From IMG/VR virus record IMGVR_UViG_3300042691_038416, positions 60,140 to 124,139 of that record: a stretch of 64,000 bases of DNA. One strand, 5' to 3'. Source of the DNA: a virus. The notes under the pieces are model-generated. The model worked only from the letters and a program-made list of their open reading frames with translations, did not search any database and was not told the origin of the DNA. The translations under genes were made by a program, and so were the position numbers. The first letter of the stretch is position 1. Each line of letters opens with the position of its first letter. Of the stretch, positions 34,690 to 63,859 are shown piece after piece.

Positions 34690-35198
34690 TGATTCTCTTT
34701 TTGTTCGTATTCTAATATTTTAGCATTAACTCTTTCAAAATAATAAGATATTTCAACTAAATAATCTTTAGCTCTTTCATTTGTTGTTGTATCTTTTATT
34801 TTCTTTAGCAATTCAAATACACTATGATGAGAATGATCTAAGTATTGTTGACCTAATACTCTTTTATCCTCAGTAAATTCACTTCTAGATTTATTATTTC
34901 CTTCCCAGTCATTTCCTGGAGCTTTACTATAATTTCCTAATTTTATTACAGCATTATTAGCAAAATTTACTAGAAGTATAAAATCTTTATGGTATTCAAA
35001 ATCAGTTAATCCATTTGCATTTCTTAACATCTGACAAATAGTACGAGGATCATCTATATTAGAAGAACCTCCCTTTACTGATTTATACTCAGAATATTCA
35101 TGTAATGGCATATGTTTTTCATTTGAAAAACAAAATAAAGTTTCTGTGTCTACTACTTGATTAACTATAAAAAAATTAGATAATGGTGGTTTATTCAT
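34686..35198 (-). CDS. Unknown protein inside the nonulosonic acid operon
   Basis: 170 residues, no family recognised. Notable are HMPLHEYSEYKSVKGGSSNI and LGQQYLDHSHHSVFELLKKI; the His-rich stretch might bind metal. Four-base overlaps on both sides tie it to the pathway. Confidence 0.7.
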   Translation of the reverse strand: MNKPPLSNFFIVNQVVDTETLFCFSNEKHMPLHEYSEYKSVKGGSSNIDDPRTICQMLRNANGLTDFEYHKDFILLVNFANNAVIKLGNYSKAPGNDWEGNNKSRSEFTEDKRVLGQQYLDHSHHSVFELLKKIKDTTTNERAKDYLVEISYYFERVNAKILEYEQKENQ

Positions 35199-36795: not shown

Positions 36796-36806
36796 ATTTT
36801 TTATTT

Positions 36807-37496
36807 TTAAAGGTTAATATATAATTTTTCTGCTATTTCAAATTGCCAAGGCCAATCAATATCAAAACATTCAATTTCTTCCATCACAAAGAAATTTGGA
36901 TCTTTTGGTTGTTTAAATGAACCCATATATATTCCATTAGCTACATCTTCAGTTGAACCCGCGTATAATGAGTGAGCTGCTTCATAGCATGTCTCTACAA
37001 ATTTAGTTTCTAATGTTGCTAAGTATTTATCTTCTCCAAAAAAACGATTTATCATAACTCCATCATTATTAAATAAAAATGTTTTCTTTTCAAATACTCC
37101 AAATAATCCGTTTGAATCTACTTCAAGAAACTTGTTAACAAAATTATCTATTGTTTCTACTTTTAAAAGTGGATTACAAGCATTTATAAGTACAAAATAT
37201 TTAAAAGGTAATTTGTCATGCCACTCAAATACTTTTTGAATTGTTACAGGTTCTTGAGTTGATTCTTCACTTCGTACAAAATAGTTGATTCCATATTTAT
37301 TAGCTATATCAATTAATTCTTGATCCATAACTGATAGATAGAAATTTTCTTTAGGAATAATAGATGATTGTAAAACTTTATTTATAGCTATTTCAAATAA
37401 ATTAGAATTAGCAAATGGTTTAAGCATTTTATTTGGAACTCGAGTTGATTGAGTTCTTGCTTGAATAACAAAAATTATATCTTTTATATTTTTCAT
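36807..37496 (-). CDS. CMP-nonulosonic acid synthetase-like cytidylyltransferase
   Basis: 229 residues from the ATG at 37496. VIQARTQSTRVPNKMLKPF is the NeuA/KdsB/PseF nucleotide-binding motif; NACNPLLKVETIDNF follows the pattern of the second sugar and metal site (usually QPTSPLR). Activates the product of the NeuB-type enzyme with CTP. The longer in-frame start at 37535 would overlap the preceding gene and is less likely. Confidence 0.85.
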   Translation of the reverse strand: MKNIKDIIFVIQARTQSTRVPNKMLKPFANSNLFEIAINKVLQSSIIPKENFYLSVMDQELIDIANKYGINYFVRSEESTQEPVTIQKVFEWHDKLPFKYFVLINACNPLLKVETIDNFVNKFLEVDSNGLFGVFEKKTFLFNNDGVMINRFFGEDKYLATLETKFVETCYEAAHSLYAGSTEDVANGIYMGSFKQPKDPNFFVMEEIECFDIDWPWQFEIAEKLYINL

Positions 37497-37497
37497 A

Positions 37498-38076
37498 TTA
37501 TTTAAATAAATTAAGTATTTGATCTTGAGGAACATCTAAAGATATATGAGCATACGGTTGAAGTCCTCCTCCATTTCTAAAACAGTGAATATTAAAATAA
37601 TCTGGATTTAGCTGTAAACATCCTCCTGGTACTTGATGAGGCTGAGAAATTAGATATTCATTAAATATAAAATTTTTACATCCACGTTTTAATAATTCTA
37701 TGAAGAAATTTTCTTGAGTTTCTTTACTCTCATACATCATAGTACCTTGAGTATAAATTAAACAGTTAGATAAATCTAGTAAAATATTATTAGCATATTC
37801 TGTAAAATCTTTTATTGAGCATTCATGATATTCTAAATTTTCAAATTTATCAACCCATACTATTTCATCAAATGGAGCTATATCAAATCCTATTAATTTA
37901 TATTTATTATTAAAAGGTTTAAAATCTCTTCCAGATGCACAACCAAAATTAATAATGGTATTAATATTTTTTGGTAAAATATCAATTATGTTATATAAGA
38001 ATAGTTCTGGGGTAAGATATTCTTGTTTTTGAAGCTTAAAATAATGATTCCAATTAATCCAATGAGGATAATTCAT
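37498..38076 (-). CDS. SAM-dependent methyltransferase-like protein
   Basis: 192 residues. IINFGCASGRDFKPFNNKYK and GFDIAP resemble motifs I and II of class I methyltransferases. Substrate unknown; the place suggests sugar methylation. One base from both neighbours. Confidence 0.65.
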   Translation of the reverse strand: MNYPHWINWNHYFKLQKQEYLTPELFLYNIIDILPKNINTIINFGCASGRDFKPFNNKYKLIGFDIAPFDEIVWVDKFENLEYHECSIKDFTEYANNILLDLSNCLIYTQGTMMYESKETQENFFIELLKRGCKNFIFNEYLISQPHQVPGGCLQLNPDYFNIHCFRNGGGLQPYAHISLDVPQDQILNLFK

Positions 38077-38077
38077 A

Positions 38078-38941
38078 TTAATATATTTTTAAATATTTTT
38101 GTTTTTCTTTTAAATTAATATAATCTTGAGAATTAGGATTAATTTGATTAACTGTAGGGTCATAATTAATATTTAAACCATTTCTAAGCCAAATAGCATC
38201 AGGTCTTAAATATAAAGCATGACTCATACATCTAAATCCTTTAGATACTAAACCTCCTCTATGGTAACCACTATTATTAGTAATAATAACATCTCCTACT
38301 GTACCCTTAAAAGTAACAGCAGCGTTATTACATATCTCAGTTTGTTCTGAGGTCATATTATAACTTCCACCATTACTATATATGTAATCTTCAAAAGTTG
38401 TTTTACCTTGATTTAAAATAAAATTTCCACCACAGTAACTATTAGGTACATACTGTAGTGCTCCATTTTCTTCTTCTACATCATGATAATAGATAAAAAC
38501 TTTCATTAATTTATAATCTTCTCCATCTCTATGCCAGTTTTGAGATCCACTTCTTCCTAAAGGACGTTCACCGTGAATCCAAAATAAAACATTATAAATT
38601 AAAGGATCTATTTTTAAAAATCTAGTAGATAATTCAATAAAATAATCATTTAAATACAAATTAAATAAATCTCCATCTTGTAAAGATAATCCTCGGTTTA
38701 AATAATCATAATGAGTTATTTCATAAAATTTATCTTTATTTTTTATATTTAAACCTTGTTTGATAGTTTCTAATTGGTACTGTATTTCTGGATTTGAAAG
38801 CATTTGATCATAAAAATCACTTGCTTTATTAAAAGATTCTATCCCAGATGAATCTAGAATATCAACAACATTTGTTTTATAATATCCTACTGTCTCTAAA
38901 TTATGTAGTGCTTCTAACACTTTTTGTTCATTGTAAGCCAT
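38078..38941 (-). CDS. PhyH-like Fe(II)/2-oxoglutarate dioxygenase
   Basis: 287 residues. NWHRDGEDY (HxD) near 157, EENGALQYVPNSY, and NNSGYHRGG with the distal His and Arg, which make up the iron and 2-oxoglutarate site. The family hydroxylates or oxidises small molecules and sugars. An oxidative step on the glycan is inferred. Confidence 0.82.
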   Translation of the reverse strand: MAYNEQKVLEALHNLETVGYYKTNVVDILDSSGIESFNKASDFYDQMLSNPEIQYQLETIKQGLNIKNKDKFYEITHYDYLNRGLSLQDGDLFNLYLNDYFIELSTRFLKIDPLIYNVLFWIHGERPLGRSGSQNWHRDGEDYKLMKVFIYYHDVEEENGALQYVPNSYCGGNFILNQGKTTFEDYIYSNGGSYNMTSEQTEICNNAAVTFKGTVGDVIITNNSGYHRGGLVSKGFRCMSHALYLRPDAIWLRNGLNINYDPTVNQINPNSQDYINLKEKQKYLKIY

Positions 38942-38951
38942 AAATTTTTTA

Positions 38952-40232
38952 TTAGTTGTTTTTTCTAAAAATTGCTATTGGGCGTTTTCCTTCTAAGACA
39001 CTATCAATATTATTAAGATTTTCACTTAAAAATTTAAATGCTTTATCAGCAGCATCAATTGTTTTTTGAATATCTTTTTTAGTATGAGCGAAACTTATAT
39101 AAATCACATTTGGAAATAATATTCCTTGTTTTACCATTTCTTGGTAAAATAAAGCTTTTAATCCATCAGCATCTGGGTATGTCTCAGAATTAAAAGTTAA
39201 ATTATGTCTAGGAGCGTCACCAGCAAAATTAATATCTAGATTATATTTTTTAGCTGCTTCTTTGATTCCTAAGTCAAGCATATTTCCTAATTCCCAAATA
39301 TAATTGTAGTTTTTAGTTTTAAGTTCTTTAATAGTTTCAATAGCAGCTACTAATGATAAACATTCACCTCCAAAAGTCATAGAATAAAAAACATAATCTA
39401 ATTCTTTCATAAATTCTTTTTTACCAGCTATAGCGGCTAAAGGCATTCCATTAGCTACAGCTTTACCTAAACAACATAAATCAGGAGTTACACCAAAATA
39501 TTCTTGAGCGCCACCTAAACTCCATCTAAACCCAGTTACTACTTCATCAAAAATAAGAACAACTTTATATTTATCACACAAATCTCTTACACCTTGTAAA
39601 AATCCAGGAGCAGGAGTAGTTAATGCTTGTGGCTCAATAATAACAGCAGCTACATCATCTTTTTTAAGTAATTCTTCTAAACTATCTAAATTATTAAACT
39701 CAAATTCATCTATTAAGTCTTTTAAACATTTAGGTACACCATAATCTCTAATTGAAATGGCATGCCAATCTCCCCATCCATGATAACCACCTTTAGGTTT
39801 TAATATTTTTTCTTTACCTGTATATGAACGAGCTATTCTTACTGAGGCTAGATTAACATCTGTTCCGTTTTTACCAAAACGAACTTGCTCAGCACAAGGT
39901 ACCACTTCACTAATTAATTGAGCTAATTCTTGTTCTAATAAAGTAGGCCAAGAAAATATAATACCATTTTTAAGTTGTTTTTTAATAGCTTTATTTGTAC
40001 GATTATGGTTATAACCTAGAATAATTGGTCCTAAACCACACATATAATCAAGATATTTTTTATCATCAAGACCATATAAATAGGCTCCTTTACCTGATTT
40101 TACAAATTTAGGATAAACTCCATCTACAAATTGATCAGGACATTTACTCATTGTTTGAGTACCTCTAGGCATAAGTCTAAGAGCATTATCCCAAAGTTCT
40201 TGTTCATTAATTTTCTTCTTTTTAATTAGCAT
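38952..40232 (-). CDS. Class III PLP aminotransferase (GSA-aminomutase-like)
   Basis: 426 residues. LIFDEVVTGFRWSLGGAQEY and LGKAVANGMPLAAIAG with the PLP Lys are as in glutamate-1-semialdehyde aminomutases and acetylornithine-type transaminases. In nonulosonic pathways the amino group is normally set by a DegT-type enzyme (PseC), so this is probably a different aminotransferase family used for the same or another sugar position. Length normal. Confidence 0.85.
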   Translation of the reverse strand: MLIKKKKINEQELWDNALRLMPRGTQTMSKCPDQFVDGVYPKFVKSGKGAYLYGLDDKKYLDYMCGLGPIILGYNHNRTNKAIKKQLKNGIIFSWPTLLEQELAQLISEVVPCAEQVRFGKNGTDVNLASVRIARSYTGKEKILKPKGGYHGWGDWHAISIRDYGVPKCLKDLIDEFEFNNLDSLEELLKKDDVAAVIIEPQALTTPAPGFLQGVRDLCDKYKVVLIFDEVVTGFRWSLGGAQEYFGVTPDLCCLGKAVANGMPLAAIAGKKEFMKELDYVFYSMTFGGECLSLVAAIETIKELKTKNYNYIWELGNMLDLGIKEAAKKYNLDINFAGDAPRHNLTFNSETYPDADGLKALFYQEMVKQGILFPNVIYISFAHTKKDIQKTIDAADKAFKFLSENLNNIDSVLEGKRPIAIFRKNN

Positions 40233-41223
40233 CTTTTAAACCTTTATTTATTAGTTTTGTTAAATAATCTATATCATGATTTAAAAATATACCTGAGTTA
40301 AATTCTTGACCTGTATATTTTTCTAAAATATATTCTTTTTCTGTGTATTGAGGAATAACACAAAGTAATTTATTACAATGTTCAGTTGTGAATCCTGGTA
40401 AGAAATTTGAGTGATATGTGAATGGCAACTCAGTTTTTGCTATCATATCTTCATGAAATTTTTCTCCTGGACGCATTCCTATAGTATTATATTTAATTTC
40501 TTTATTTGTTATTTGAGATAAGGCTTTAATTATAGTTTCCATATCAAATGAGTCAAAATAAGGAATAAATACTTCTCCTCCAATACTATTAATTAAAGAA
40601 GATAATACAGTATTAACTGCATCTTCTAATGTAAATAAAAATCTTGTACAATCCAAAGAAGTAACATTAATACTTTTATTTTGGTTAACTAAATCTAACC
40701 ATAAAGGAATAAATGAACCTCTACTAGCTATTACATTACCGTATCTAACTGAACTAAAAATAGTATTAGGAGAATTATAATCAGAATTTGTAAATAATCT
40801 TTCTGCTGTGAATTTAGATGCTCCATATACATTAATAGGAATACATGCTTTATCTGTAGAAACTAAAATACATTTATCAACGTTAGCTTCCATAGCAGCA
40901 TTAGCAACATTTATAGAACCCTGGATATTTGTTTTAACACATTCTTCAGGATAATATTCCATGTCATCAATACGTTTTAAAGCGGCGGCGTGGATAATAT
41001 AATTCGGTTTATGTTTTTTACATGTTTTGACTAATTGTTCATAATCTCTAACATCACCAATTACTTTAATAATTGATTTATCTTGACCAAAATATAAAGC
41101 TTGTTTACCTTCATCACGACTATAAACAATAATTTTACAATTATATTTTTTAAGACGTTGGATGATAGCTCTACCTAATGAACCTGTTCCTCCAGTAATT
41201 AATATAGTTTTATTATTAAACAT
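40222..41223 (-). CDS. PseB-like UDP-GlcNAc 4,6-dehydratase
   Basis: 333 residues. SDR Rossmann motif TGGTGSLGRA, HAAALKRIDDMEYYPEECVK, STDKACIPINVYGASK with the catalytic Tyr-Lys, GNVIASRGSFIPLW and GMRPGEKFHE are the sequence marks of the inverting dehydratases PseB/FlaA1. First step of pseudaminic acid synthesis. Confidence 0.88.
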   Translation of the reverse strand: MFNNKTILITGGTGSLGRAIIQRLKKYNCKIIVYSRDEGKQALYFGQDKSIIKVIGDVRDYEQLVKTCKKHKPNYIIHAAALKRIDDMEYYPEECVKTNIQGSINVANAAMEANVDKCILVSTDKACIPINVYGASKFTAERLFTNSDYNSPNTIFSSVRYGNVIASRGSFIPLWLDLVNQNKSINVTSLDCTRFLFTLEDAVNTVLSSLINSIGGEVFIPYFDSFDMETIIKALSQITNKEIKYNTIGMRPGEKFHEDMIAKTELPFTYHSNFLPGFTTEHCNKLLCVIPQYTEKEYILEKYTGQEFNSGIFLNHDIDYLTKLINKGLKDAN

Positions 41224-42400
41224 ATAAATTTTCTATTTCATTAACAATTCTTTCTGATGCTTTAAAATCATTAAAGTCATCGAATATTTTTAACACTGAT
41301 TTAGCATTAGGAGAATCTATTTCTAACCATTTAAAATTATCATCATAAATTATTAAATTATTTTTAATAATATTAATTAAATTATTTTTTCTATCAATAG
41401 CCTTATCAATAAATTTAGGATCTATTTTATCAACTAACTCTTCAAATGAATTTACTCTCATAATTGGAGCCCAAAAATCATAATGTTTAGTATGATTATA
41501 ATTTTGTAGATCAAATCCTTTTTCAATTCCAATATCTTTAATATCAAAAATAACTGTTTTTTTATTTAACACTAAAGAATAATACATTATTGAACTTATT
41601 ATGCCAACATTTATATCTGAAGCTTTGACTATAGATTGAAATGAGGCTTCATCTTTTATTACTTTAATATAAGGAATATTTTTTAGATTATCAAAATTAT
41701 TTTCAAAATCTTTTGAAAAATCAATATATTCTACAGGATGAGGTTTATAAAATAATTCATATTCACTATGAAGTTTTTCTACTATATTTTTAGTTTTATC
41801 TAAAATCTCATCATGCATAAATTTATTCATAGAACCATAAATAATAATAATTGGTTTTATTTTTTTATATGGTTCTATATCAATAAGACTATCAAATTTA
41901 GAATTACCTACTATTTTAGTTTTATGAGTTACCCAACTAGCTATTTTTTTAGTTTCAAATACCCAGTCACTATGATCAAAAAACATATCTATTAAATTTG
42001 TAGGAAAAGACTTTCTACTATATAATTCTAATTTAGAGTCAATTTCTGAGTATAACCAACTTGAGTTTTCAATACAACATATTAAAGTTCCTAGTTGTTT
42101 AAATTCTACAAACATTGATTTTTCTGGTTCCCAATTTTCTCTACTTACTAGTAATACATCAGGAATAAAAGGTAAGGTTATACCACCTAAAGTTTTAGCA
42201 ATATATGTTTTGTTTGACTCTGTTACATTAGAATCATACATAAAACTATTTAATGAAATGTGAGGATATTGAGTACTTAATTCATTTGTATATAAAAAGA
42301 AAAAATTATGATCTCGTTTTTTTATTTCTTTAACAATGTTAATTAATTCTACAGTACATCTATCACTAGTAGAAACTATTAATATATTTTTCTTTTTCAT
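41216..42400 (-). CDS. GT-B-type glycosyltransferase-like protein
   Basis: 394 residues. Two Rossmann halves; the second has IIIYGSMNKFMHDEILDK, FYKPHPVEY and ASDINVGIISSIMYYSLVLN, the pattern of the poly-glycerol-phosphate or capsule glycosyltransferases and also of UDP-GlcNAc 2-epimerase-like folds. It could be a transferase for the CMP sugar or a PseG-like hydrolase; I cannot decide. Confidence 0.7.
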   Translation of the reverse strand: MKKKNILIVSTSDRCTVELINIVKEIKKRDHNFFFLYTNELSTQYPHISLNSFMYDSNVTESNKTYIAKTLGGITLPFIPDVLLVSRENWEPEKSMFVEFKQLGTLICCIENSSWLYSEIDSKLELYSRKSFPTNLIDMFFDHSDWVFETKKIASWVTHKTKIVGNSKFDSLIDIEPYKKIKPIIIIYGSMNKFMHDEILDKTKNIVEKLHSEYELFYKPHPVEYIDFSKDFENNFDNLKNIPYIKVIKDEASFQSIVKASDINVGIISSIMYYSLVLNKKTVIFDIKDIGIEKGFDLQNYNHTKHYDFWAPIMRVNSFEELVDKIDPKFIDKAIDRKNNLINIIKNNLIIYDDNFKWLEIDSPNAKSVLKIFDDFNDFKASERIVNEIENLYV

Positions 42401-43359
42401 TTTAATTTTTCAATATCGTTCTCAACCATTTTCTTAACCATATCACTAAAACTAGTTTTTGGAGACCATCTTAACTCAGAGTTTGCTTTAAAATAACTAC
42501 CTCGTAACACATCTACTTCAGCTGGTCTCATAAATCTTGGATCTTGTTTAATATAAGAAGACCAATCTGTTATTCCAACAACTTTAAAAGCCTCATCTAA
42601 AAATTCTCTAATAGATCTAGTTTCATTAGTAGCAATTACATAGTCATCTGCTTTATCTTGTTGTAACATTAACCACATTGCTTCAACATAATCAGGAGCA
42701 TATCCCCAATCTCGTTTAGCATCTAGATTACCTAATGTAATATGATCTGAGAGTCCTAAATGGATTCTAGCTACACCATCAGATATTTTTCTAGTTACAA
42801 ATTCAATACCTCTTCTTTCACTTTCATGGTTAAATAAAATACCACTACAAGCAAACATATTATATGATTCTCTATAATTCTTTGTAATCCAATGTCCATA
42901 TAATTTAGCTACACCATATGGTGATCTAGGATAGAAAGGAGTATTTTCATTAGCTGGATTTTCTACCATTCTACCAAACATTTCTGAGCTTGATGCTTGA
43001 TAGAATTTAATTTTTTCATGACCATACTCTCTAATTGCTTCAAGTATTCTTAATACTCCTAAACCAGTCACATTAGATGTTTGTTCAGGTGTATTCCAGC
43101 TCTCACCTACAAATGATTGAGCTGCTAAGTTATATACTTCATCTGGGTTAGATTCTTTTAATGCTCTTAAAAGTGAATTTTGATCTGTTAAATCACCTTT
43201 TATAAAATTAATTTTACCTTCTAAGTGTTTAATATTAGTTCTATTTTCACCTGAACTTCTTCTCTCTAAACCATATATAGTATAACCTTTTTGGAGGAGG
43301 AAGTCAGCTAAATGACTTCCATCCATACCATTTATACCTGTAATTAGGGCTGTTTTCAT
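42397..43359 (-). CDS. gmd: GDP-mannose 4,6-dehydratase
   Basis: 320 residues. TGINGMDGSHLADFLLQKGY, YNLAAQSFVGESW, YQASSSEMFG and PRSPYGVAK (catalytic Tyr-Lys), then GNLDAKRDWGYA: full Gmd signature. Makes GDP-4-keto-6-deoxymannose, precursor of fucose, rhamnose, perosamine and others. It belongs to a GDP-sugar branch different from the UDP branch of PseB. Confidence 0.92.
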   Translation of the reverse strand: MKTALITGINGMDGSHLADFLLQKGYTIYGLERRSSGENRTNIKHLEGKINFIKGDLTDQNSLLRALKESNPDEVYNLAAQSFVGESWNTPEQTSNVTGLGVLRILEAIREYGHEKIKFYQASSSEMFGRMVENPANENTPFYPRSPYGVAKLYGHWITKNYRESYNMFACSGILFNHESERRGIEFVTRKISDGVARIHLGLSDHITLGNLDAKRDWGYAPDYVEAMWLMLQQDKADDYVIATNETRSIREFLDEAFKVVGITDWSSYIKQDPRFMRPAEVDVLRGSYFKANSELRWSPKTSFSDMVKKMVENDIEKLK

Positions 43360-43979
43360 AATGAATTGTAATAACTATTTTGTTTTTCTTGTCTTTCTAC
43401 TGTTTTAGGATGATATAAAGCATAATCTTCTAATCCAGGTAAATGAGCATAATTTTTATATCCATCTAACTTTTCATGAACTTTATTAATCCATTTGATT
43501 TCAGGAGTATTTTTATAAATTCTCCATTGATGATCAGGCCATTGAATCCATCCTTTTTCATTTATTTTCCAACCCCATCTTTTAACATAATTTTCATCTA
43601 CTTTAGGATATAAAGTATTTACTCTAGGAACTAAGATGATATCAGATTCATTGTTTTCTAAAATGAATGGTAAACTTTCTATTAAAGTTATGTTAGGATA
43701 TTCATCAGCGTCAATTTGAAAGATCCAATCTCCAGAACATATATGATTTAACTCATTTTTCCAGTTTGCAAAATGTCCTTTAAATTCACTTTCTTTTAAA
43801 GTGATCCAATTTGCTGATGAGTATCTATAAAGTTGATCTAATAATTCTTGTGATGCTTTTGGTTTATCAAGTAAGACTACAATTTCGTCTTCTTGTCTTA
43901 TATTTTCTTTTAGAAGAGGAATTAAACAACTAATTTCTTCTAGTTCATTACAAACTGTTATAGCATAACTTATTTTCAT
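43356..43979 (-). CDS. Small family 2 glycosyltransferase-like protein, leaderless start
   Basis: 207 residues. ISYAITVCNELEEISCLIPL and IVVLLDKPKAS, then GDWIFQIDADEYPN as DxD motif, GT2-like GT-A fold, short C-terminal part. First gene of the 17-gene glycan operon; the ATG is 5 bases from the -7 box, so the operon mRNA should be leaderless. It also uses an ATGA overlap with gmd. Confidence 0.8.
   Translation of the reverse strand: MKISYAITVCNELEEISCLIPLLKENIRQEDEIVVLLDKPKASQELLDQLYRYSSANWITLKESEFKGHFANWKNELNHICSGDWIFQIDADEYPNITLIESLPFILENNESDIILVPRVNTLYPKVDENYVKRWGWKINEKGWIQWPDHQWRIYKNTPEIKWINKVHEKLDGYKNYAHLPGLEDYALYHPKTVERQEKQNSYYNSL

Positions 43980-50657: not shown

Positions 50658-50658
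<1 letters not shown>
50413..50658 (-). CDS. Small protein of unknown function behind groEL
   Basis: 81 residues. ILIAKRVPPGDRWSLLNGED near the start is coded by a GC-rich palindrome (50596-50633), then a beta and Pro-rich end (APPPKKFNIYGDY). One-base overlap with groEL. No family recognised. Confidence 0.65.
50596..50633. repeat. GC-rich imperfect palindrome inside a gene
   Basis: TAGCGA...TCGCTA, GCG...CGC and GTCCCC...GGGGAC pair one inside the other in 38 bases, all in frame with the 50413-50658 protein. GC-rich in an AT-rich environment. Confidence 0.6.
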
Positions 50659-52298
<1,640 letters not shown>

Positions 52299-52303
52299 TT
52301 AAT

Positions 52304-52591
52304 TTATTCTATAACTGCTAATACTTGTGATTCTTGACATGCCCAATATTCTTGACCTTCATGATCAAGTTTAGTTGGTCCCATAGCTGGTAGATATACT
52401 TTTTGACCTACTTCTAATGTTGTTTTAATGTAATTACCAGTGACTGACCAGTAGCCGTCTCCAACAGAGACAATAGTTCCTACTAATCCTTTTTCTTTTC
52501 CTAAATCTGGTACTACAATTGAACCATAAGTGGTTTCTTCCTCTTCTTGAGGTTTAACAATAATGTTGTTGAAAACTGCTTTTAATGACAT
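52304..52591 (-). CDS. groES: GroES co-chaperonin
   Basis: 95 residues. Typical ten-kDa beta barrel: NNIIVKPQEEEETTYGSIVV with mobile loop, GTIVSVGDGYW, VGQKVYLPAMGPTKLDHEGQ and EYWACQESQVLAVIE. The mobile loop differs from the host type, suggesting it is tuned to the phage GroEL. Confidence 0.92.
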   Translation of the reverse strand: MSLKAVFNNIIVKPQEEEETTYGSIVVPDLGKEKGLVGTIVSVGDGYWSVTGNYIKTTLEVGQKVYLPAMGPTKLDHEGQEYWACQESQVLAVIE

Positions 52592-56227: not shown

Positions 56228-56824
56228 TTAAAAAAATTTCTTAAGATCTGGTTTAAAATAGTTAATGTTTTTCATCACTTTTCTATCTCTTGATCTATAG
56301 ACAATCCAATATTCACCTACTTTTTCATAATGACATGGTTCACCTTGTTGTTCAGATCTTACTTTAACTGTTTCAATTGCTTCTTCTTCTGTCTTACAAG
56401 CTTTACTCATGTTTGATGCTTGTACCTCAGCATACGCATCCTGGAATTTATCTTTTAAACCATGAAGCATAACTCCATTACCTGTTGCTACATAAGTGAT
56501 ATCACAAAGTGCATCTAATACTTCTACAATATTTCCTGTTTCACAAGCTTCCTTATATTCCTCTAATTCTTCTAAAATAAAATTATAAACAAACATCCAT
56601 TCTTTTTCATCTGGAATATTTGGAGTATAAGTATTTGGCTTGCCCATTGTAGCATTAAATTCCTCTACTTCAGAGATATAAGGTACATAATTTAGTTTTT
56701 GTTCTAATGAAACAATTTTTTCTATAACATCATCACCTAATTCAATTTTAGACATCATTGACAAATCAATAACTTGTGATTTAAGTACTTTTATTAATTC
56801 TTGGTAGATTTTTTCTTTTTCCAT
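56228..56824 (-). CDS. MazG-like nucleotide pyrophosphohydrolase-type protein
   Basis: 198 residues from the ATG at 56824; the longer frame would start inside the promoter. ILEELEEYKEACETGNIVEV followed by LDALCDITYVATG gives the EExxE...D metal site of MazG/HisE-like enzymes. C-terminal beta part (EPCHYEKVGEYWIVYRSRD). Likely hydrolyses NTPs or dNTPs. Cotranscribed with the polymerase gene. Confidence 0.8.
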   Translation of the reverse strand: MEKEKIYQELIKVLKSQVIDLSMMSKIELGDDVIEKIVSLEQKLNYVPYISEVEEFNATMGKPNTYTPNIPDEKEWMFVYNFILEELEEYKEACETGNIVEVLDALCDITYVATGNGVMLHGLKDKFQDAYAEVQASNMSKACKTEEEAIETVKVRSEQQGEPCHYEKVGEYWIVYRSRDRKVMKNINYFKPDLKKFF

Positions 56825-56841
56825 ATAACTTTTATTTTTTA

Positions 56842-56877
56842 TTAATATAAGAAAAAAGGCTTGGATCACCAAGCCTT
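56842..56877 (-). promoter_or_regulatory. Promoter merged with terminator for the polymerase operon
   Basis: Minus strand CTTGGTGAT (-33, inside the hairpin) and TATATTAA at 56842-56849 (-7). Confidence 0.6.
56856..56877 (-). terminator. Rho-independent terminator after the beta-helix gene
   Basis: AAGGCTTGG-TGAT-CCAAGCCTT followed by TTTTCTTA on the minus strand. Confidence 0.88.
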
Positions 56878-56900: not shown

Positions 56901-58346
56901 TTATCTAGGTACTGCTAAGAAATAATATCTGTTAGAACCACACCCTCCACCACTACAATTTTGTACAGCTGTTCCACTAAACCAAGTAGGAACTGTGGTA
57001 CTAGGTGTTTGAGTTGTTAAAGAGTTTTCATTATATTTTAATATCCAACCTACAGCACCTGCGTTATTAAATGCTTTACCAGCTTTGAACACCCAATAAG
57101 ACACATGAGATATTTCTGCTGTGATATAACCACCTGTAGCACCTATATCTGCTAAGATAGAAGCGTATTGTCCAAATACTTTATCTATTGTAACAATACC
57201 ATTAGCCATTCTAACTTTAATAAATGCTTCTGTAGCACCTTGAGTACATTCAAAGTGAGTATTACGTACTGTAAAATCTTTTACTACTGTTGAGGATTGT
57301 CCATCAAAATCAATACCTGCTCTAACTGAAAATCCTTCGATAATACAATCTTCAACTACAACACCTGAGGCAGCTACAATTTTAAAAGCAACATCTCCCG
57401 AACCAAAGTATCTGCAGCTTCTAAAAGTAGTATGGTTTGATTGAGAGTTTGAGTTGGAAGATCCAGCCCAGTTACCTCTATCAGCTACCCAACCAGAAAC
57501 GCAGTTAGTAGCAAAGCAGTTATCTACTGTGGTTCTCAAAGCAAAACGTAAGTGAATACATTCACCTAAAGTCTCGCCCATTATGTTTTGGTAATATGCA
57601 CCATAGGTAGGACCGATATCAATACCAATTTGAGTATTAGTGCCTTTCAATACTAAATTTCTAAAAGTACACCTGAGATCAATCATCGTATTAGCATCAC
57701 TATTATCTGTAGGTGAAGGTCTGCTAAATATAGGTGTAGTACCAGTAGATATTAATTTAGAATAGTTACCATCAATTTGAAAGTATTTAGAATATTTTTC
57801 AATCATTATAGATTTAGTACCAATGTAATAAGTACCACCTCTTGCTTTTACGCCACCACCATTCAATGTTGCTTGCTTAACAGCCATCTGCCAAGCTGCC
57901 CAATCAACAAGATCCGAGGTAGTAAAACCCATTCCTGGATAAAGAGCGTTGATAGTATCTTGTGTAATACCACGTTGAGCAAAAGTTTGATTTGCTCTGA
58001 TTGCTCCGTATTGTTCAGGTGTATAATCAGCTCCTCCTCCACTACCTCCTGATGAACTAATATATATAGTGTCTTTTGTTACAATAAATACAGTATCCTT
58101 TAATGATAAAGACTTAAATAAACTATCTTTAACCCAAGTAGTACTACCTGTATATCTATATTGATCCCCAGTTTTTGGGTTTATATTATAATATCCTGTT
58201 TTAATTATATTTCCGGTTCCAAATGGATTATAATTTAGAGTAGAGGTATCATTAGTAATACGATACCAAGTTATTGTTTTTTGCCCAAAAGATAAAGTAC
58301 TAGTTAATAATAAAACTGCTAATAATAATTGTTTTGTAAAATGCAT
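56901..58346 (-). CDS. Secreted right-handed beta-helix protein
   Basis: 481 residues. Signal peptide (MHFTKQLLLAVLLLTSTLSF, cleavage after GQ). After a linker with a Gly/Ser stretch, ADYTPEQYGAIRANQTF then GGGVKARGGTYYIG opens a pectate-lyase-like beta helix, with repeats such as TTFRSCRYFGSGDV and VVVEDCIIEGFSV. The C-terminus is RYYFLAVPR. It resembles phage tail-spike depolymerases, except that it has an export signal, which would be useless for a virion component made in the cytoplasm. A secreted glycan-binding or glycan-degrading protein is inferred. Confidence 0.75.
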   Translation of the reverse strand: MHFTKQLLLAVLLLTSTLSFGQKTITWYRITNDTSTLNYNPFGTGNIIKTGYYNINPKTGDQYRYTGSTTWVKDSLFKSLSLKDTVFIVTKDTIYISSSGGSGGGADYTPEQYGAIRANQTFAQRGITQDTINALYPGMGFTTSDLVDWAAWQMAVKQATLNGGGVKARGGTYYIGTKSIMIEKYSKYFQIDGNYSKLISTGTTPIFSRPSPTDNSDANTMIDLRCTFRNLVLKGTNTQIGIDIGPTYGAYYQNIMGETLGECIHLRFALRTTVDNCFATNCVSGWVADRGNWAGSSNSNSQSNHTTFRSCRYFGSGDVAFKIVAASGVVVEDCIIEGFSVRAGIDFDGQSSTVVKDFTVRNTHFECTQGATEAFIKVRMANGIVTIDKVFGQYASILADIGATGGYITAEISHVSYWVFKAGKAFNNAGAVGWILKYNENSLTTQTPSTTVPTWFSGTAVQNCSGGGCGSNRYYFLAVPR

Positions 58347-58876
58347 AATTTATAGATTTTATATAGTTTTTCATCAGTATGTAATCTTACAAAGTACATA
58401 CCATTTGATAATTTAGATAAATTTAAATTTGTGTGATAATCTATAATTTGTGTGTTATAAACCAATAAATTACTAGTTGTGTATACTGATATTTGTAAAT
58501 TTTCTACTAGTTGATTAATAAATATATTTACGTTATTAATAGCTGGGTTAGGTGAAATAACAGAAATTACAGGTTCATCTTTTTTAACTAACCAATAGTC
58601 ATAATCTGATGGATTAGAAAGAATTTTATTGTTTTTCACTTCTGTATAACCTAATATATTGTATGATTCATTATTTAAGTCAAAAATTTCATCACTAAAA
58701 TATGAAGGAACTCTCCAAACAACTATACCTAAATCATCAGTATGAATAATGTCATAATCTTCTATATTTGTTGATTTATAGTAAGATGTAGAAACTATAC
58801 CTATAGATTCATTATACTGAGATTTAACTTTTGTTGAAAAAGTAAGAAACAATATAATTAGAATGATATATTTCAT
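58319..58876 (-). CDS. Exported protein with type IX secretion sorting domain
   Basis: 185 residues. Signal peptide (MKYIILIILFLTFSTKVKSQ). Residues 85-100 contain DYDYWLVKKDE, the linker often seen before Bacteroidota CTDs. Then VISVISPNPAINNVNIFINQ, LQISVYTTSNLLVYN and LNLSKLSNGMYFVRLHTDEK make up the full type A T9SS C-terminal domain. The host T9SS should export it to the cell surface. It overlaps the beta-helix gene start by 28 bases, so both are made together. Confidence 0.82.
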   Translation of the reverse strand: MKYIILIILFLTFSTKVKSQYNESIGIVSTSYYKSTNIEDYDIIHTDDLGIVVWRVPSYFSDEIFDLNNESYNILGYTEVKNNKILSNPSDYDYWLVKKDEPVISVISPNPAINNVNIFINQLVENLQISVYTTSNLLVYNTQIIDYHTNLNLSKLSNGMYFVRLHTDEKLYKIYKLCILQNNYY

Positions 58877-58900
58877 TTGGTTTTGGTTGATTGTACACCA

Positions 58901-58909
58901 ATAAATATT
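58901..58909 (-). promoter_or_regulatory. Candidate late-type box AATATTTAT for the exported-protein genes
   Basis: AATATTTAT on the minus strand, 24 bases before the ATG at 58876. Confidence 0.35.
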
Positions 58910-58925
58910 GCGAAATTTTTAAAAT

Positions 58926-59936
58926 TTACGCGAAATTATTTAACCAAATGTACTTTGAATCACTATTATATAATTTTAGTTTTTGTTTATTTAAAAATTT
59001 AAATAATCCCCAATCACCAAAAAAGTAAGCAGTTTCTAATTTAATTTGAATACTATCTACTGAGTTAGGATCTGCTTTAAAGCAATTATTTACCCAAAAT
59101 ATTTCAGGAGAAACTACAACAGGTATATTATTATTTACAAAATCTGCTGTCACAATATTAAATGTCTCAGAATAACTCACTTGCATTCCAATATCCATTT
59201 GTTTAATCACATTAACAAATTCATGATGAGGCATCCATTCATGTTTAATTAATTTATGATATGGATTATTTGCGAATAAATTTTCTATATTTTTTAAAAT
59301 AGGTTCTCCTTTACCTTCAACTCGAGTAGCATTAATATGAAAATGAATAGATTTTCTTAAACTATTTCCAAAATTAATAGCTGCTACTGCTTGTATTAAT
59401 TGATTTTTTAAAGGTCTAATAGCTCCAAAACATCCTATATTGATATGAGTTTTAGGTTGTTTTTTATTTTTATGATTGTATACTGGGTAGTAATTTGGAA
59501 GATATAGGATAGGACGTTTTAATAATTCTGTAAGTTGTTTATCCATTCTTCTTGAATTAACAGATAAAATTACATTTTTACAATCTAGATACTTATAAAT
59601 CCACTCTATAGCGATTCCTTCACCTGATAAGAAAGGAATTTCACTGTGTAATCTAACAATCCATTTTACATTTGGATGTAATTTAGCTAAAACTTTAAAC
59701 TTTTCAGGCGTAACCCATAATGCTTCTATAATAACATGAGTTGGTTTATATAAATGGACTTCTTTATCTATAGAATTAGCATCAACTACATTTGCTAATT
59801 TAGCTTCTACTCCATTATGATTTAACATATTAACAACAAACTGAGCTGAATTGTACAGACCAGACGCTATAGGGGTATTAGTTATGTTTGAATAAATGTG
59901 TTTTTGTTTACTGATAAAAAGAAGTCTAGATTTCAT
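58926..59936 (-). CDS. Glycosyltransferase (GT-B type)
   Basis: 336 residues. LYNSAQFVVNMLNHNGVEAK at the N-terminus, INIGCFGAIRPLKNQLIQAV as middle motif and GMQVSYSETFNIVTADFVNN as the donor-binding part typical of GT4 proteins. It lies among exported proteins rather than in the glycan operon, so its acceptor is open. Confidence 0.75.
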   Translation of the reverse strand: MKSRLLFISKQKHIYSNITNTPIASGLYNSAQFVVNMLNHNGVEAKLANVVDANSIDKEVHLYKPTHVIIEALWVTPEKFKVLAKLHPNVKWIVRLHSEIPFLSGEGIAIEWIYKYLDCKNVILSVNSRRMDKQLTELLKRPILYLPNYYPVYNHKNKKQPKTHINIGCFGAIRPLKNQLIQAVAAINFGNSLRKSIHFHINATRVEGKGEPILKNIENLFANNPYHKLIKHEWMPHHEFVNVIKQMDIGMQVSYSETFNIVTADFVNNNIPVVVSPEIFWVNNCFKADPNSVDSIQIKLETAYFFGDWGLFKFLNKQKLKLYNSDSKYIWLNNFA

Positions 59937-59979
59937 AGGTTAAGGTTTCTCATAAATATAGAGAAATCTTAACTAAGGA

Positions 59980-60216
59980 TTATTCTATAGTAATTACTTC
60001 ACCACTTAATAATATTTCAATAGATTGTCCTCTTTTAAGTGGTTTATCTAAATTTATAAGTTTTAAAATCGCGTCACAAAAATTTCTTATACCTATAGGT
60101 TCACCTGGAGCTACATAAGCATCTTCGTATTCTCTACCTTCTACTTTAATTATTATAGGTTTATTTTTTGTTAACATGTATAACCCATTATGCTGTCTAG
60201 TTAACCACAATCTCAT
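59980..60216 (-). CDS. Small beta-rich protein of unknown function
   Basis: 78 residues (MRLWLTRQHNGLYMLTKNKP...EVITIE). Strand-rich, charged. 9 bases behind the lipoprotein gene. No family recognised. Confidence 0.65.
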   Translation of the reverse strand: MRLWLTRQHNGLYMLTKNKPIIIKVEGREYEDAYVAPGEPIGIRNFCDAILKLINLDKPLKRGQSIEILLSGEVITIE

Positions 60217-60225
60217 ATTAAATTC

Positions 60226-61200
60226 TTATCTAGGAGGGATAGCGGCATAACAATATCTTTTAGTAAACCACACAAATCCCTTAAAGTTAATCCACTGCTT
60301 TTGAAACGATGTCATATTATAGTAAATATTATTATACGTTTGAGTTTCAATATATAAATAAGGATTTGGATACCCAAAAGCAGCCGCTAAAGTAGGACCT
60401 GTGAAAGTATTACTAGCTCCCCAGGCTGTATTCTCAGCAGATATAATGATGTAGAGATTAATTCGTTTATTAGCCTGTCGTGCCCCTTTGGCGATAATAT
60501 CCAATCTGCCACCGGTGGCACCGGTACTTTGAGCATTAGCATAACTATAAGTAGGAATCCCATTTTGATAACAATGTAATAAAATTCTATCTGAATATCT
60601 AACTTGATCTTTAGAGGCAATAGTATCTATAGTTGATCCTAAGTTCTTATACCAACCCTCATAAAAATCATTTGTAACTATTGTTCCATTATTTATTTGT
60701 TGATTTATATTATTCCAGTTACTCCAAGTAGTAGCTCCATTCCACCACTCAAGTTCTAAATTAGCTATATTAATTTTTTTAGTAGGATCAGATTGTGAGT
60801 TATTATATCTAGTAATATTTCCTGTGGTTGAAAAAGTTGTTGAGCTACCACTCACTACAGCTCTAGTTGTTACACCACTATCATTTAATTGCTTTAAAAA
60901 ATTACTAAAATTAGTATAATTAGAAGTAGAAGATACAATTCCAGAAGTACTATAAAAATATACTCCTGTAAAGTTATATTTTTTAAGGTATCTACTAAAA
61001 GTATTTTTACCTTGAGTATTATTATATAATGTATCAGTTTTATCTACATACATTAATCTTTCCCAAGTTGGTATTCTTAAATCTAAAGGAATAGTTTTGT
61101 TTAGAGCACCTGATGGAGAAATTTCTTCTTTAGCACATCTAGTGACTGATAAACATAAGAATAGTAAGATAAGTAGGAAGTGTGTGGAGCCTGTTTTCAT
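60226..61200 (-). CDS. Predicted lipoprotein with glycosidase-like or unknown domain
   Basis: 324 residues. Signal peptide and lipobox (LCLSVTRC, Cys22) then PSGALNKTIPLDLRIPTWER and strand-helix units (FTGVYFYSTSGIVSS, DSGVTTRAVVSGSS, NLELEWWNGATTW) that look like a TIM-barrel glycosidase. It ends in RYCYAAIPPR, similar to the end of 56901-58346. Should reside on the host outer membrane. Enzyme activity is inferred only from fold appearance. Confidence 0.65.
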   Translation of the reverse strand: MKTGSTHFLLILLFLCLSVTRCAKEEISPSGALNKTIPLDLRIPTWERLMYVDKTDTLYNNTQGKNTFSRYLKKYNFTGVYFYSTSGIVSSTSNYTNFSNFLKQLNDSGVTTRAVVSGSSTTFSTTGNITRYNNSQSDPTKKINIANLELEWWNGATTWSNWNNINQQINNGTIVTNDFYEGWYKNLGSTIDTIASKDQVRYSDRILLHCYQNGIPTYSYANAQSTGATGGRLDIIAKGARQANKRINLYIIISAENTAWGASNTFTGPTLAAAFGYPNPYLYIETQTYNNIYYNMTSFQKQWINFKGFVWFTKRYCYAAIPPR

Positions 61201-61225
61201 GAAAAATAACAGTTTGTGGTTTCAT

Positions 61226-61234
61226 ATAAATATT
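61226..61234 (-). promoter_or_regulatory. Candidate late-type box AATATTTAT for the lipoprotein gene
   Basis: AATATTTAT on the minus strand, 25 bases before the ATG at 61200. Confidence 0.3.
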
Positions 61235-61245
61235 ATAATATTTAG

Positions 61246-62241
61246 CTAGTTTGATAAAGGCATTTTAATTGATGGGTGTGATTGATAATTTTCTATTTGA
61301 AAATCACCTATCTCCATACTATTAATATATCTACTTATAGTACTATACTCATGATTCCAAAACTCACTATTAACAAACAATTCAGGTAATTTAAATGGCT
61401 CTCTTGTTAATTGTTCCTTAATACCATCAATTTGATTTTCATAAATGTGGCAATCACCTAAATTACCAATCAATTCATCTGGTATCATATTTGTTGCTTC
61501 TGCTAATATATGAAGTAATAAACCATAGGAAGCAATGTTGAATGGTAAACCTAATGGAACATCTACGCTTCGTTGATTCCACATTAGAGAGATTGCTCTT
61601 CTTTGTACTCCAATTTTATCTAATACTTCATGATATTGTTCCTCTGTAAGGTATCCAATAGGAAAATCCATGACATCTCTAGTAGGTATTTTATTCCATA
61701 ATTCAAATCGTTCTTTTATAGACAACTCTCTTGTATAAACTTGAAATCCATAATGACAAGGAGGTAATACCATTTGATCTAATTCACCTACATTCCAAGC
61801 TGATACCATTAATCGTCTTGAGTCAGGTTCTGTTTTTAGACTATGAACTAATCTTGCAATTTGATCATACCAAAGTGAACCAACTGCTTTACCATCTTTA
61901 ACTAACCAACCTTGCCACTGTCTCCATTGCTTACCATAAATTGGACCTAATTCACCATCTGTTCTACCACTCTTCTCATAATCACCATCCCAAATATGGC
62001 AGTTGTTATCATGCAAAAACTTAATGTTGGTATCACCTCTTAAAAACCAAAGTAATTCTGTTACAATAGTTTTCCATGCCATCTTTTTAGTTGTTAATAA
62101 AGGAAATCCATCACTCATTTTATGACGAATTTGTCTACCAAATATAGAAATGGAATCTGTACCAGTTCTAGTTTGTTTTTTGGTTCCGTTGTCAAGAATG
62201 TCTTGGCAAAGAGATAGGTATTGTGGATCTATATTATTCAT
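61246..62241 (-). CDS. thyA: Thymidylate synthase
   Basis: 331 residues. TRTGTDSISIFGRQIRH, WFLRGDTNIKFLHDNNCHIW, MVSAWNVGELDQMVLPPCHY with the catalytic Cys, QRSVDVPLGLPFNIASYGLL: complete ThyA. Makes dTMP from dUMP with methylene-tetrahydrofolate. Overlap in pathway with folE upstream (folate supply). About 9 bases behind 62251-62847. Confidence 0.95.
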   Translation of the reverse strand: MNNIDPQYLSLCQDILDNGTKKQTRTGTDSISIFGRQIRHKMSDGFPLLTTKKMAWKTIVTELLWFLRGDTNIKFLHDNNCHIWDGDYEKSGRTDGELGPIYGKQWRQWQGWLVKDGKAVGSLWYDQIARLVHSLKTEPDSRRLMVSAWNVGELDQMVLPPCHYGFQVYTRELSIKERFELWNKIPTRDVMDFPIGYLTEEQYHEVLDKIGVQRRAISLMWNQRSVDVPLGLPFNIASYGLLLHILAEATNMIPDELIGNLGDCHIYENQIDGIKEQLTREPFKLPELFVNSEFWNHEYSTISRYINSMEIGDFQIENYQSHPSIKMPLSN

Positions 62242-62250
62242 AACTTTCTA

Positions 62251-62847
62251 TTAATAGTATTTTACTCCCCAAACTTTTATATTCATAGTATTAGGGGCAA
62301 CTGATGTGCCTCCAAAATAAGGATATAAAATATAACCAGTTTGTTTAGTGGTTCCTTTACCAACAACAAATCTAGTTGTTGCTTTACCATTTTGTACTAA
62401 TGTAATCCAAGATGTATCACCTGATAATTTTTGATCAACATAAATTGGTACTTGTCTTGCATAATTACCAATTTTTCTTGATACACGAACACCTGAAAAG
62501 TAAGAGTAATTGTAAAGCATTAGTGTATCAAGTTTCCAATTCCAACCTAATCTAGTTGAGTTAGTTTGATGTGCTCCATAAGAGTAACCATATGCTTTAT
62601 TAATGTCATTACTATCAGTTGTATTAAGTTTATATTTACAATTATCTTCAAACTGGATGTAATAAGACATTCTACTAATGCCTGGGTGGGTTTGATTTAA
62701 GCGAGGTGAACAAAAATGTGCTCCTTTCGCTATTGTAAAATTAATACTGTCTGCTACTCCAGAAGCAATATCTCCTCCAGTAGGAATACAAGCAGATCCA
62801 ATTAAAATTAATGTAAAAAAGAATAAAGAATAAATAAGTGTTTTCAT
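62251..62847 (-). CDS. Predicted lipoprotein of unknown function
   Basis: 198 residues. Lipobox LIGSAC (Cys20) after a hydrophobic signal. The rest is beta-rich with few charges (MSYYIQFEDNCKYKL, GYILYPYFGGTSV). No family recognised. Cotranscribed with thyA. The start is preceded by a 156-base leader with possible secondary structure. Confidence 0.65.
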   Translation of the reverse strand: MKTLIYSLFFFTLILIGSACIPTGGDIASGVADSINFTIAKGAHFCSPRLNQTHPGISRMSYYIQFEDNCKYKLNTTDSNDINKAYGYSYGAHQTNSTRLGWNWKLDTLMLYNYSYFSGVRVSRKIGNYARQVPIYVDQKLSGDTSWITLVQNGKATTRFVVGKGTTKQTGYILYPYFGGTSVAPNTMNIKVWGVKYY

Positions 62848-63003
62848 AATTTAAATTTTTATTTTAGGAAAGTAGAAGATGGGTGCGTGGACATCTACTT
62901 TTACGATTGGCGTTTCTTGCCGATTATGGAACCTGCCCTCACCACATGCATCAGCCCTTTCTACAGTTAAAAGATGCATGGTTTCCCAATCAACCTATAT
63001 TTT
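62848..63003 (-). other. Gene-free leader with GC-rich hairpins
   Basis: 156 bases between 63004-63222 and 62251-62847, GC-rich at 62880-62990. On the minus strand GCATC/GATGC, GGC/GCC and GTA-GATG/CATC-TAC can pair in turn. No reading frame of note and no T-run was seen. Possibly a structured leader of the lipoprotein-thyA transcript or a leftover of a lost gene. Confidence 0.35.
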
Positions 63004-63222
63004 TTAACAACCATCTTCTGGTATACGTCTTAGATTTACTATTTCATCATCAGACTCATCAAAACTGAAGTATTTACAAATTTCTGTCATTACATAGTGA
63101 TAGATATTTGCTTTAAATTGATCTTCATCTAGTGTATCTGTATGCCTGCGGGCTTTATAATACCCACCCTCAATACCTTTTTCAACTGCATCTGATAATA
63201 CTCTGTATTTATTTATTTTCAT
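63004..63222 (-). CDS. Small protein of unknown function
   Basis: 72 residues, helical and charged (LSDAVEKGIEGGYYKARRHT). One base from folE. The pattern recalls small conserved phage proteins; no function inferred. Confidence 0.65.
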   Translation of the reverse strand: MKINKYRVLSDAVEKGIEGGYYKARRHTDTLDEDQFKANIYHYVMTEICKYFSFDESDDEIVNLRRIPEDGC

Positions 63223-63223
63223 A

Positions 63224-63859
63224 TTAAAATTCTACTCCATTCTTTTGAATCGCATGTAAAAATTCTTCACGAATCAAATTATCTTTTTCCATAAATACTC
63301 CACTAAATTTATTTGTGGTCATAGTACTTGTAGGATGTTTGATTCCACGATTTGAACAACACATATGTTTTGAAGCTATACTTACAGCTACAGATCCACA
63401 TTCCATTTTCTTAGCTACAAAATCATGAATCTGTTGAGTAAGTGATTCTTGCATTTGAGGTCTACGTGCAAACCAATCTACAATACGATTTAATTTACTT
63501 AAACCAATCACATAATCACTAGGCACATAAGCTACAGTAGCATAACCAATAAATGGTAAATTATGATGTGCACACATTGATATTACTGGAATGCCTGTTT
63601 GAATAACAATACCATTATAATTTTCCTCATTTGGAAATACTGTAATATTAGGTTCGTCAGTTACTGATCCAATTACAAGATCTTTTAACCATGCTTTAGC
63701 TACACGACGAGGTGTGTCCATAGTTTGAGGATCTTTTTCATAATCAAAGCCTACTGATTTTAGAAATTCACCATAGTGTTTAGTAGCTTTGTCAATCATT
63801 TTTTCAACTTCCTTAGACGAACGAGGAAGATTTTCATTTGCTTTATTTAATAAGTCCAT
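63224..63859 (-). CDS. folE: GTP cyclohydrolase I
   Basis: 211 residues. ISMCAHHNLPFIGYATVAYV, LSKLNRIVDWFARRPQMQES, and KHMCCSNRGIKHPTSTMTTN: the zinc Cys/His and GTP-binding residues are present. Makes dihydroneopterin triphosphate, used for folate or, in many phages, for 7-deazaguanine DNA modification. No further deazaguanine genes appear in the window. Confidence 0.93.
   Translation of the reverse strand: MDLLNKANENLPRSSKEVEKMIDKATKHYGEFLKSVGFDYEKDPQTMDTPRRVAKAWLKDLVIGSVTDEPNITVFPNEENYNGIVIQTGIPVISMCAHHNLPFIGYATVAYVPSDYVIGLSKLNRIVDWFARRPQMQESLTQQIHDFVAKKMECGSVAVSIASKHMCCSNRGIKHPTSTMTTNKFSGVFMEKDNLIREEFLHAIQKNGVEF

What the first reader, a model, noticed from the sequence alone, without database searches (positions are those of the whole stretch)
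58319..58876. Phage protein with a type IX secretion C-terminal domain
Signal peptide plus a full type A T9SS sorting domain (SPNP...GMYFVRL pattern) means the phage product should be exported by the host's T9SS to the cell surface. I know of no described use of T9SS by phages. It could be a surface shield, adhesin or superinfection-exclusion factor in Bacteroidota.
Basis: partly seen in the sequence, partly recalled or inferred. Interest (0 to 1): 0.8.

Follow-up and report, generated by a model that had tools for sequence, protein, structure and literature searches.

The report
Phage-encoded cargo for host type-IX secretion
A virus of Bacteroidota bacteria carries a gene for a small protein bearing the host's own 'export me to the cell surface' tag; similar tagged genes recur in several unrelated phages, one of them cultured, and in one such family the tag is kept by selection, so phages very probably use this bacterial secretion machine, though what the exported protein does is unknown.

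Summary
Window 58319-58876, on the minus strand, encodes 185 aa with a Sec signal peptide and a C-terminal T9SS type A sorting domain: TIGR04183 37.2 bits (cut-off 23), PF18962 40 bits (cut-off 27). The predicted domain is a 7-stranded sandwich whose best solved match is a T9SS substrate CTD bound in the SprA/PorV translocon (8glk_D). It is not host contamination: a sister phage contig has a 38%-identical orthologue in the same gene order, also over both cut-offs. The gene sits in a variable slot enriched in exported proteins. The pattern is wider than those reports: CTD cargo occurs in four more phages of this lineage, the cultured Flavobacterium phage immuto and two huge phages; a ~630-aa phage cargo family has CTDs under purifying selection (median dN/dS 0.26). 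Most likely the product is exported by the host's T9SS to the surface of the infected cell. Its role (receptor masking, superinfection exclusion, adhesion) is inference. New member of a known, untested kind.

The parts
58319..58876 (-). T9SS type A cargo gene, 185 aa
   Evidence: ORF; TIGR04183 and PF18962 above curated cut-offs; codon usage; orthologue L052:7659-8210, 38% identity
58820..58876 (-). Sec signal peptide, residues 1-19, predicted cleavage before Q20
   Evidence: n-, h- and c-region by eye and rule; Q at +1 as in the Bacteroidetes Q-rule (PMC5837995); aligned signal peptide in orthologue
58568..58819 (-). passenger, residues 20-103, possibly one degenerate beta-blade (YDIIHTDDLGIVVW...NPSDYDYWLVK)
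   Evidence: 46% identical to orthologue, more than the CTD at 29%; no relative in INPHARED, GTDB genomes or Pfam; low-confidence strands in the model
58322..58567 (-). T9SS type A sorting domain (CTD) plus C-terminal extension, residues 104-185
   Evidence: 7 strands, residues 105-179; best PDB fold match 8glk_D, NucA CTD in the T9SS translocon; sequence profile hits 8glk_D and 8glj_D
56901..58346 (-). next gene: 481-aa secreted protein with beta-helix-like region and Q-rule signal peptide; overlaps the CTD gene by 28 nt; pair also found in L052
   Evidence: PF13229 22.7 bits, just under its cut-off 25.9; orthologue L052:8192-9457 in the same order
58926..59936 (-). glycosyltransferase-like protein in the same slot
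   Evidence: weak phrog_2170 match, E=0.0021
60226..61200 (-). putative lipoprotein, 324 aa, in the same slot
   Evidence: lipoprotein-type leader by eye
62251..62847 (-). putative lipoprotein, 198 aa, in the same slot
   Evidence: lipoprotein-type leader by eye
56901..63222 (-). variable accessory slot between the MazG-like gene (56228-56872) and folE (63224-63859)
   Evidence: slot content differs in nearly every relative; 4 of 6 exported proteins of the window lie here, p=2.7e-4

Best explanation
The gene is a phage-carried (moron-like) cargo gene for the host's type IX secretion system. Inferred route: Sec export; signal peptidase I cleavage before Q20; entry of the C-terminal beta-sandwich into the SprA pore with PorV; crossing of the outer membrane; and, as for other type A cargo, removal of the CTD with release of the ~80-residue passenger or its attachment to surface lipopolysaccharide. 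It acts with co-encoded exported proteins (beta-helix-like protein, two lipoproteins, glycosyltransferase-like protein) to change the surface of the infected Bacteroidota cell. Most plausibly it masks or competes for surface structures that phages bind, excluding rivals or stopping released progeny from sticking to the dying cell. Shown here: the two signals, the orthologue, the slot and the recurrence in other phages. Inferred: export itself, the Bacteroidota host and the surface role.
For: CTD over both curated cut-offs, with 7 predicted strands and best PDB fold match to a CTD captured in the T9SS translocon (8glk_D, TM 0.81 on the target), also found by sequence profiles. Orthologue in a sister phage, same order polB-MazG-betahelix-CTD, also over both cut-offs, with dN/dS about 0.47. 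All three SPI-type leaders of the window have Q at +1. Exported genes cluster in the slot. Other phage T9SS cargo over cut-off: four more phages of the lineage, cultured Flavobacterium phage immuto, two huge phages, 13 of 50 contigs carrying a linked module. CTDs of the ~630-aa phage cargo family are under purifying selection (median dN/dS 0.26). Literature: type A CTDs are necessary and sufficient for export via PorV (PMC10994853; PMC12618676), and C-terminal extensions are tolerated (PMC11285876).
Against: No export experiment. The host is inferred, not identified. This CTD is the faster-evolving half of the protein (29% against 46% identity), lacks the beta3-beta4 Gly, and has a C-terminal extension. 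The passenger has no identifiable function. No record in INPHARED holds a relative of the whole protein.
Confidence: 0.7

Rival explanations
1. T9SS jammer: the protein is mainly a CTD with a small passenger, and its job is to occupy SprA/PorV so that less host cargo (gliding adhesins, phage receptors) reaches the surface.
For: Small passenger in this and several other phage cargo proteins (136-243 aa in all). Phage receptors in Flavobacterium are thought to be part of the gliding machinery (PMC7345892).
Against: The passenger is better conserved than the CTD between the two orthologues (46% against 29%), the reverse of what a jammer predicts; other phage cargo carry large passengers (629-aa protein in G043; a subtilase in G031, though its CTD match is below cut-off).
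Confidence: 0.1
2. Decaying captured host gene: a fragment of a host T9SS protein carried along with no current function.
For: Very low G+C (22.2%, second lowest of 54 genes); missing loop Gly and C-terminal extension; the sister phage carries a second cargo-like gene with a truncated CTD (L052:6075-6593); blade-like passenger reminiscent of host repeat proteins (by eye).
Against: Intact ORF in two phages despite 62% amino-acid divergence, aligned signal peptide, same junction with the next gene and same KLC(I/V)LQN tail; dN/dS about 0.47, below 1.
Confidence: 0.15
3. Not a T9SS signal in practice: an Ig-like domain resembling a CTD that works in the periplasm or on the virion.
For: CTDs are Ig-like sandwiches and phages use Ig-like domains widely; the tail is atypical.
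Against: A cleavable Sec leader argues against a virion protein; matches are specific to the T9SS CTD family and to translocon-bound CTDs.
Confidence: 0.04
4. Host DNA joined to phage by assembly error.
For: Low G+C of the gene.
Against: Orthologous genes in the same order in two other contigs from different metagenomes (L052 and L111, 99.99% identical to each other); phage genes on both sides.
Confidence: 0.01

Closest known systems
T9SS type A sorting domain (TIGR04183 / PF18962 Por_Secre_tail), e.g. NucA CTD of Flavobacterium johnsoniae in PDB 8glk
   Same: Profile above cut-off, C-terminal position, Sec leader, 7-stranded sandwich, PNP and GxY motifs, Lys near the C-terminus
   Different: Phage-encoded; loop Gly replaced; about 9-residue C-terminal extension; very short passenger
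Cryophage T9SS cargo genes (Bellas et al. 2020, PMC7468147)
   Same: Type A CTD cargo genes in variable regions of a Bacteroidetes phage; same proposed hijack of host T9SS
   Different: Cryophage is a 76-kb circular phage with endoglucanase, GH39 and PA14 passengers; here a phage of at least 124 kb with T4-type polB and an ~80-aa passenger of unknown fold. MT820023 was not in the collection, so no direct comparison
T9SS sorting domains in crAss-like phages (de Jonge et al. 2019, PMC6949934)
   Same: Phage genes with T9SS sorting domains
   Different: Next to head genes and linked with BACON domains; a different phage group
Cohesin-T9SS cargo of Flavobacterium phage immuto (NC_055915 gp015, annotated only as cohesin domain-containing protein)
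   Same: Phage gene with Q-rule leader and type A CTD over cut-off
   Different: Cohesin passenger, different phage genus without this polB, inside an exported-gene module whose 251-aa marker protein is absent from the window's record
Q-rule secreted proteins of Porphyromonas gingivalis phages (PMC10367356)
   Same: Phage proteins adapted to Bacteroidota Sec/SPI export
   Different: The paper's text names no T9SS or sorting domain

Membership tests
T9SS type A cargo (TIGR04183/PF18962) | Profile match above curated cut-off | tested here: met
   37.2 vs 23 and 40 vs 27 bits; orthologue 31.4 and 33.2
T9SS type A cargo (TIGR04183/PF18962) | Domain at the C-terminus | tested here: met
   Residues 107-176 of 185; short C-terminal extensions are tolerated in studied CTDs (PMC11285876)
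T9SS type A cargo (TIGR04183/PF18962) | N-terminal Sec signal peptide | tested here: met
   Rule-based and by eye; no trained predictor available
T9SS type A cargo (TIGR04183/PF18962) | Seven-stranded Ig-like sandwich | tested here: met
   AlphaFold2: 7 strands 105-179, pLDDT about 70-93 over 111-180; 8glk_D TM 0.81, mirolase CTD TM 0.70 on target
T9SS type A cargo (TIGR04183/PF18962) | Conserved glycine in the beta3-beta4 loop | tested here: not met
   TTSNLLV (window) and ITHKLV (L052) in place of xNGKLV. Treated as non-defining: G to P was tolerated in RgpB though G to R was not, and the mirolase CTD lacks the motif
T9SS type A cargo (TIGR04183/PF18962) | Near-invariant lysine near the C-terminus | tested here: inconclusive
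   K173 and K176 both kept in the orthologue; the alignment does not settle which is equivalent to RemZ K1110
T9SS type A cargo (TIGR04183/PF18962) | SprA/PorV-dependent secretion | not testable with these tools
   Needs a secretion assay
T9SS type A cargo (TIGR04183/PF18962) | Host possesses a T9SS | not tested
   Host unknown; Q-rule leaders and CTDs point to Bacteroidota
Phage-encoded T9SS cargo (as in Cryophage) | CTD gene resident in a phage genome, not host contamination | tested here: met
   Syntenic orthologue in L052/L111
Phage-encoded T9SS cargo (as in Cryophage) | Lies in a variable region | tested here: met
   MazG-folE slot differs between relatives; neighbours polB 94% and folE 90% identical, cargo 38%
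T9SS type B cargo (TIGR04131) | Match to TIGR04131 | tested here: not met
   No match in the window's record

The most novel reading that the evidence does not exclude
Use of the host T9SS is a general, selected strategy of Bacteroidota phages. Unrelated lytic and huge phages carry a pool of exchangeable T9SS cargo genes, including a conserved ~630-aa cargo family linked to an exported module whose marker protein is seen in hundreds of viral contigs, and at least one type B cargo, by which they rebuild the infected cell's surface during infection.
Probability: 0.5. Interest if true: 0.8.

Novelty: new member of a known kind. Interest (0 to 1): 0.58.

Why it matters
T9SS is a main route by which many Bacteroidota build their surface (gliding adhesins, proteases, glycan-degrading enzymes), and phage receptors in Flavobacterium are thought to lie among these structures. 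If phages place their own proteins there, that is a way for a virus to recode the infected cell's surface, relevant to superinfection exclusion, receptor masking, progeny release and biofilm ecology. Finding such cargo in a cultured phage (immuto on Flavobacterium sp. LMO8) makes a so far purely predicted idea directly testable.

Tried and rejected
Single-protein search of IMG/VR gave nothing; the orthologue appeared only through the polB neighbourhood and then the two-sequence alignment. INPHARED tblastn of the whole protein: one chance hit. GTDB genome scan with A2: no bacterial relative, so the impression that the passenger is one blade of a host repeat protein stays an impression. PHROGs: no family. 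Cryophage record not held. Records MT836089 and MT836839 have CTDs but look like bacterial contigs (unverified faecal scaffolds), so not counted. One LR756501 hit is an internal CTD-like domain, not C-terminal. G031 and G042 type A matches are below the curated cut-off, used only as hints. The CsgG resemblance of the 251-aa module protein is by eye; Pfam finds nothing.

Full report
What is there. The ORF lies at 58319-58876 on the minus strand and encodes 185 aa. Residues 1-19 form a Sec leader that would be cut before Q20; residues 107-176 match the T9SS type A sorting domain with 37.2 bits in TIGR04183 (cut-off 23) and 40 bits in PF18962 (cut-off 27). It is the only type A CTD in the 124,139-bp virus record. 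The same family search exceeds its cut-off in only one of 14 control genomes. Codon usage favours this frame over the five others.

The phage. The window is nearly all on the minus strand and encodes a T4-type DNA polymerase B, GroEL/GroES, a clamp-loader-like protein, thyA, folE and a sugar-biosynthesis cluster (functions other than those named from the sequences). The polymerase finds at least 114 relatives in IMG/VR, 78 loci kept, and only distant ones among named phages.

Not contamination. In L052 (polB 94% identical) the order polB-MazG-betahelix-CTD recurs. The cargo orthologue there is 38% identical, passes both cut-offs and ends in the same KLC(I/V)LQN tail overlapping the next gene. 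A near-identical piece comes from another metagenome (L111). Between the two orthologues dN/dS is about 0.47, with the passenger 46% and the CTD 29% identical, while folE is 90% and polB 94% identical: a fast-evolving accessory gene, still constrained.

Slot. Between the MazG-like gene and folE, gene content differs in nearly every relative. In the window this slot holds 4 of the 6 exported proteins of the whole window (p=2.7e-4; exported proteins judged by simple rules and eye): the CTD protein, a 481-aa beta-helix-like secreted protein and two lipoproteins, beside a glycosyltransferase-like protein. All three signal-peptidase-I-type leaders in the window have Q at +1, as the Bacteroidetes Q-rule predicts (PMC5837995). 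The same adaptation was reported for P. gingivalis phages (PMC10367356).

Structure. AlphaFold2 on a 7-row alignment gives seven strands for residues 105-179 with pLDDT about 70-93 over 111-180; the passenger is low-confidence. The best PDB match is 8glk_D, the NucA substrate CTD bound in the F. johnsoniae T9SS (TM 0.81 on target), followed among CTDs by mirolase, PorZ and RemA. Sequence profiles find the T9SS substrate chains 8glk_D and 8glj_D as well. The beta3-beta4 Gly is replaced, but the published record on that residue is mixed, and C-terminal extensions are tolerated (PMC11285876). Lys residues near the C-terminus are present; such a Lys is the one near-invariant contact residue (PMC10994853).

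Recurrence. TIGR04183 over 79 records (78 of the polB lineage plus the L111 piece) finds four further phages over cut-off: G020, G032 (same slot, beside a collagen-like secreted protein), G043 and L052/L111. Below cut-off are a subtilase (G031) and a 765-aa protein that looks like a beta-helix (G042). G042 also has a type B CTD protein over cut-off (TIGR04131, 45.8 vs 35). Elsewhere: cultured Flavobacterium phage immuto (cohesin + CTD) and two huge phages. In G043 and immuto the cargo is followed by the same module, including a secreted protein 54% identical between them. That protein has at least 300 relatives in IMG/VR. Of 50 such records, 13 have a CTD gene over cut-off, a ~630-aa cargo upstream of the module protein wherever the locus shows it. 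In that family the CTD is under purifying selection (median dN/dS 0.26; passenger 0.13), so phage-borne CTDs are maintained, not merely captured. This evidence concerns the related family, not the window gene itself.

Mechanism. Shown: both export signals, conservation, location, recurrence. From established knowledge: type A CTDs are sufficient for SprA/PorV export, with release or LPS attachment. Inferred: the host is a T9SS-bearing Bacteroidota; the product reaches the surface; it masks or alters receptors. Flavobacterium phage receptors are suspected to belong to the gliding machinery (PMC7345892), which fits exclusion but does not prove it. A T9SS-jamming role and neutral decay are less likely but open.

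Novelty. Phage-encoded T9SS cargo was predicted for Cryophage, with the same hijack and exclusion idea (PMC7468147), and noted in crAss-like phages (PMC6949934). The window gene is a new member. What seems to go beyond those reports is the breadth across unrelated phages, a cultured example, a type B example and the selection on the CTD; the literature search covered open-licence papers only.

Noticed in passing
L122-L132, L144-L147, L150; L090 3923-8755; L091 7506-10683: Conserved exported module in Bacteroidota phages: ~630-aa (or cohesin 243-aa) T9SS cargo, a ~105-aa TM protein, a ~250-aa secreted protein (CsgG-like by eye) and a ~475-aa beta-barrel-like secreted protein; the 250-aa protein has at least 300 relatives in IMG/VR.
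   Followed up: partly
L089:1818-2393 (G042): Phage gene with a type B T9SS CTD (TIGR04131, 45.8 bits vs 35), near a papain-like lipoprotein (L089:196-1740, by eye) and a 765-aa beta-helix-like protein.
   Followed up: partly
L087:4364-6646 (G031): Secreted S8 subtilase (PF00082, 104.7 bits) with a sub-threshold T9SS CTD in a phage, near an endolysin-like gene and small exported genes.
   Followed up: partly
L052:6075-6593: Second T9SS-cargo-like gene with a Q-rule leader, acidic stretch and a CTD cut off after the NILGQ motif, in the same slot as the orthologue and just upstream of a GH19 endolysin.
   Followed up: partly
LR756501 and LR745206 (L100, L101, L103): Huge phages (735 and 635 kb) carry small secreted proteins of 136-199 aa with C-terminal type A CTDs over cut-off.
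   Followed up: partly
window 29908-43979: Large sugar-biosynthesis cluster: NeuB, cytidylyltransferase, class-III aminotransferase, Polysacc_synt_2 dehydratase, PIG-L deacetylase, formyltransferase-like, GNAT, GDP-mannose dehydratase; looks like a phage-encoded nonulosonic-acid-type glycan pathway.
   Followed up: partly
window 50658-52591: Phage-encoded GroEL and GroES pair next to a clamp-loader-like gene (named from the sequence).
   Followed up: no
window 58319-58876: G+C 22.2%, GC3 13%, second lowest of 54 genes, while the neighbouring beta-helix gene is 34.5%: the pair may have been assembled from different sources.
   Followed up: no
window 60226-61200: 324-aa putative lipoprotein without any family match; by eye may be a TIM-barrel-like glycosidase fold.
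   Followed up: no
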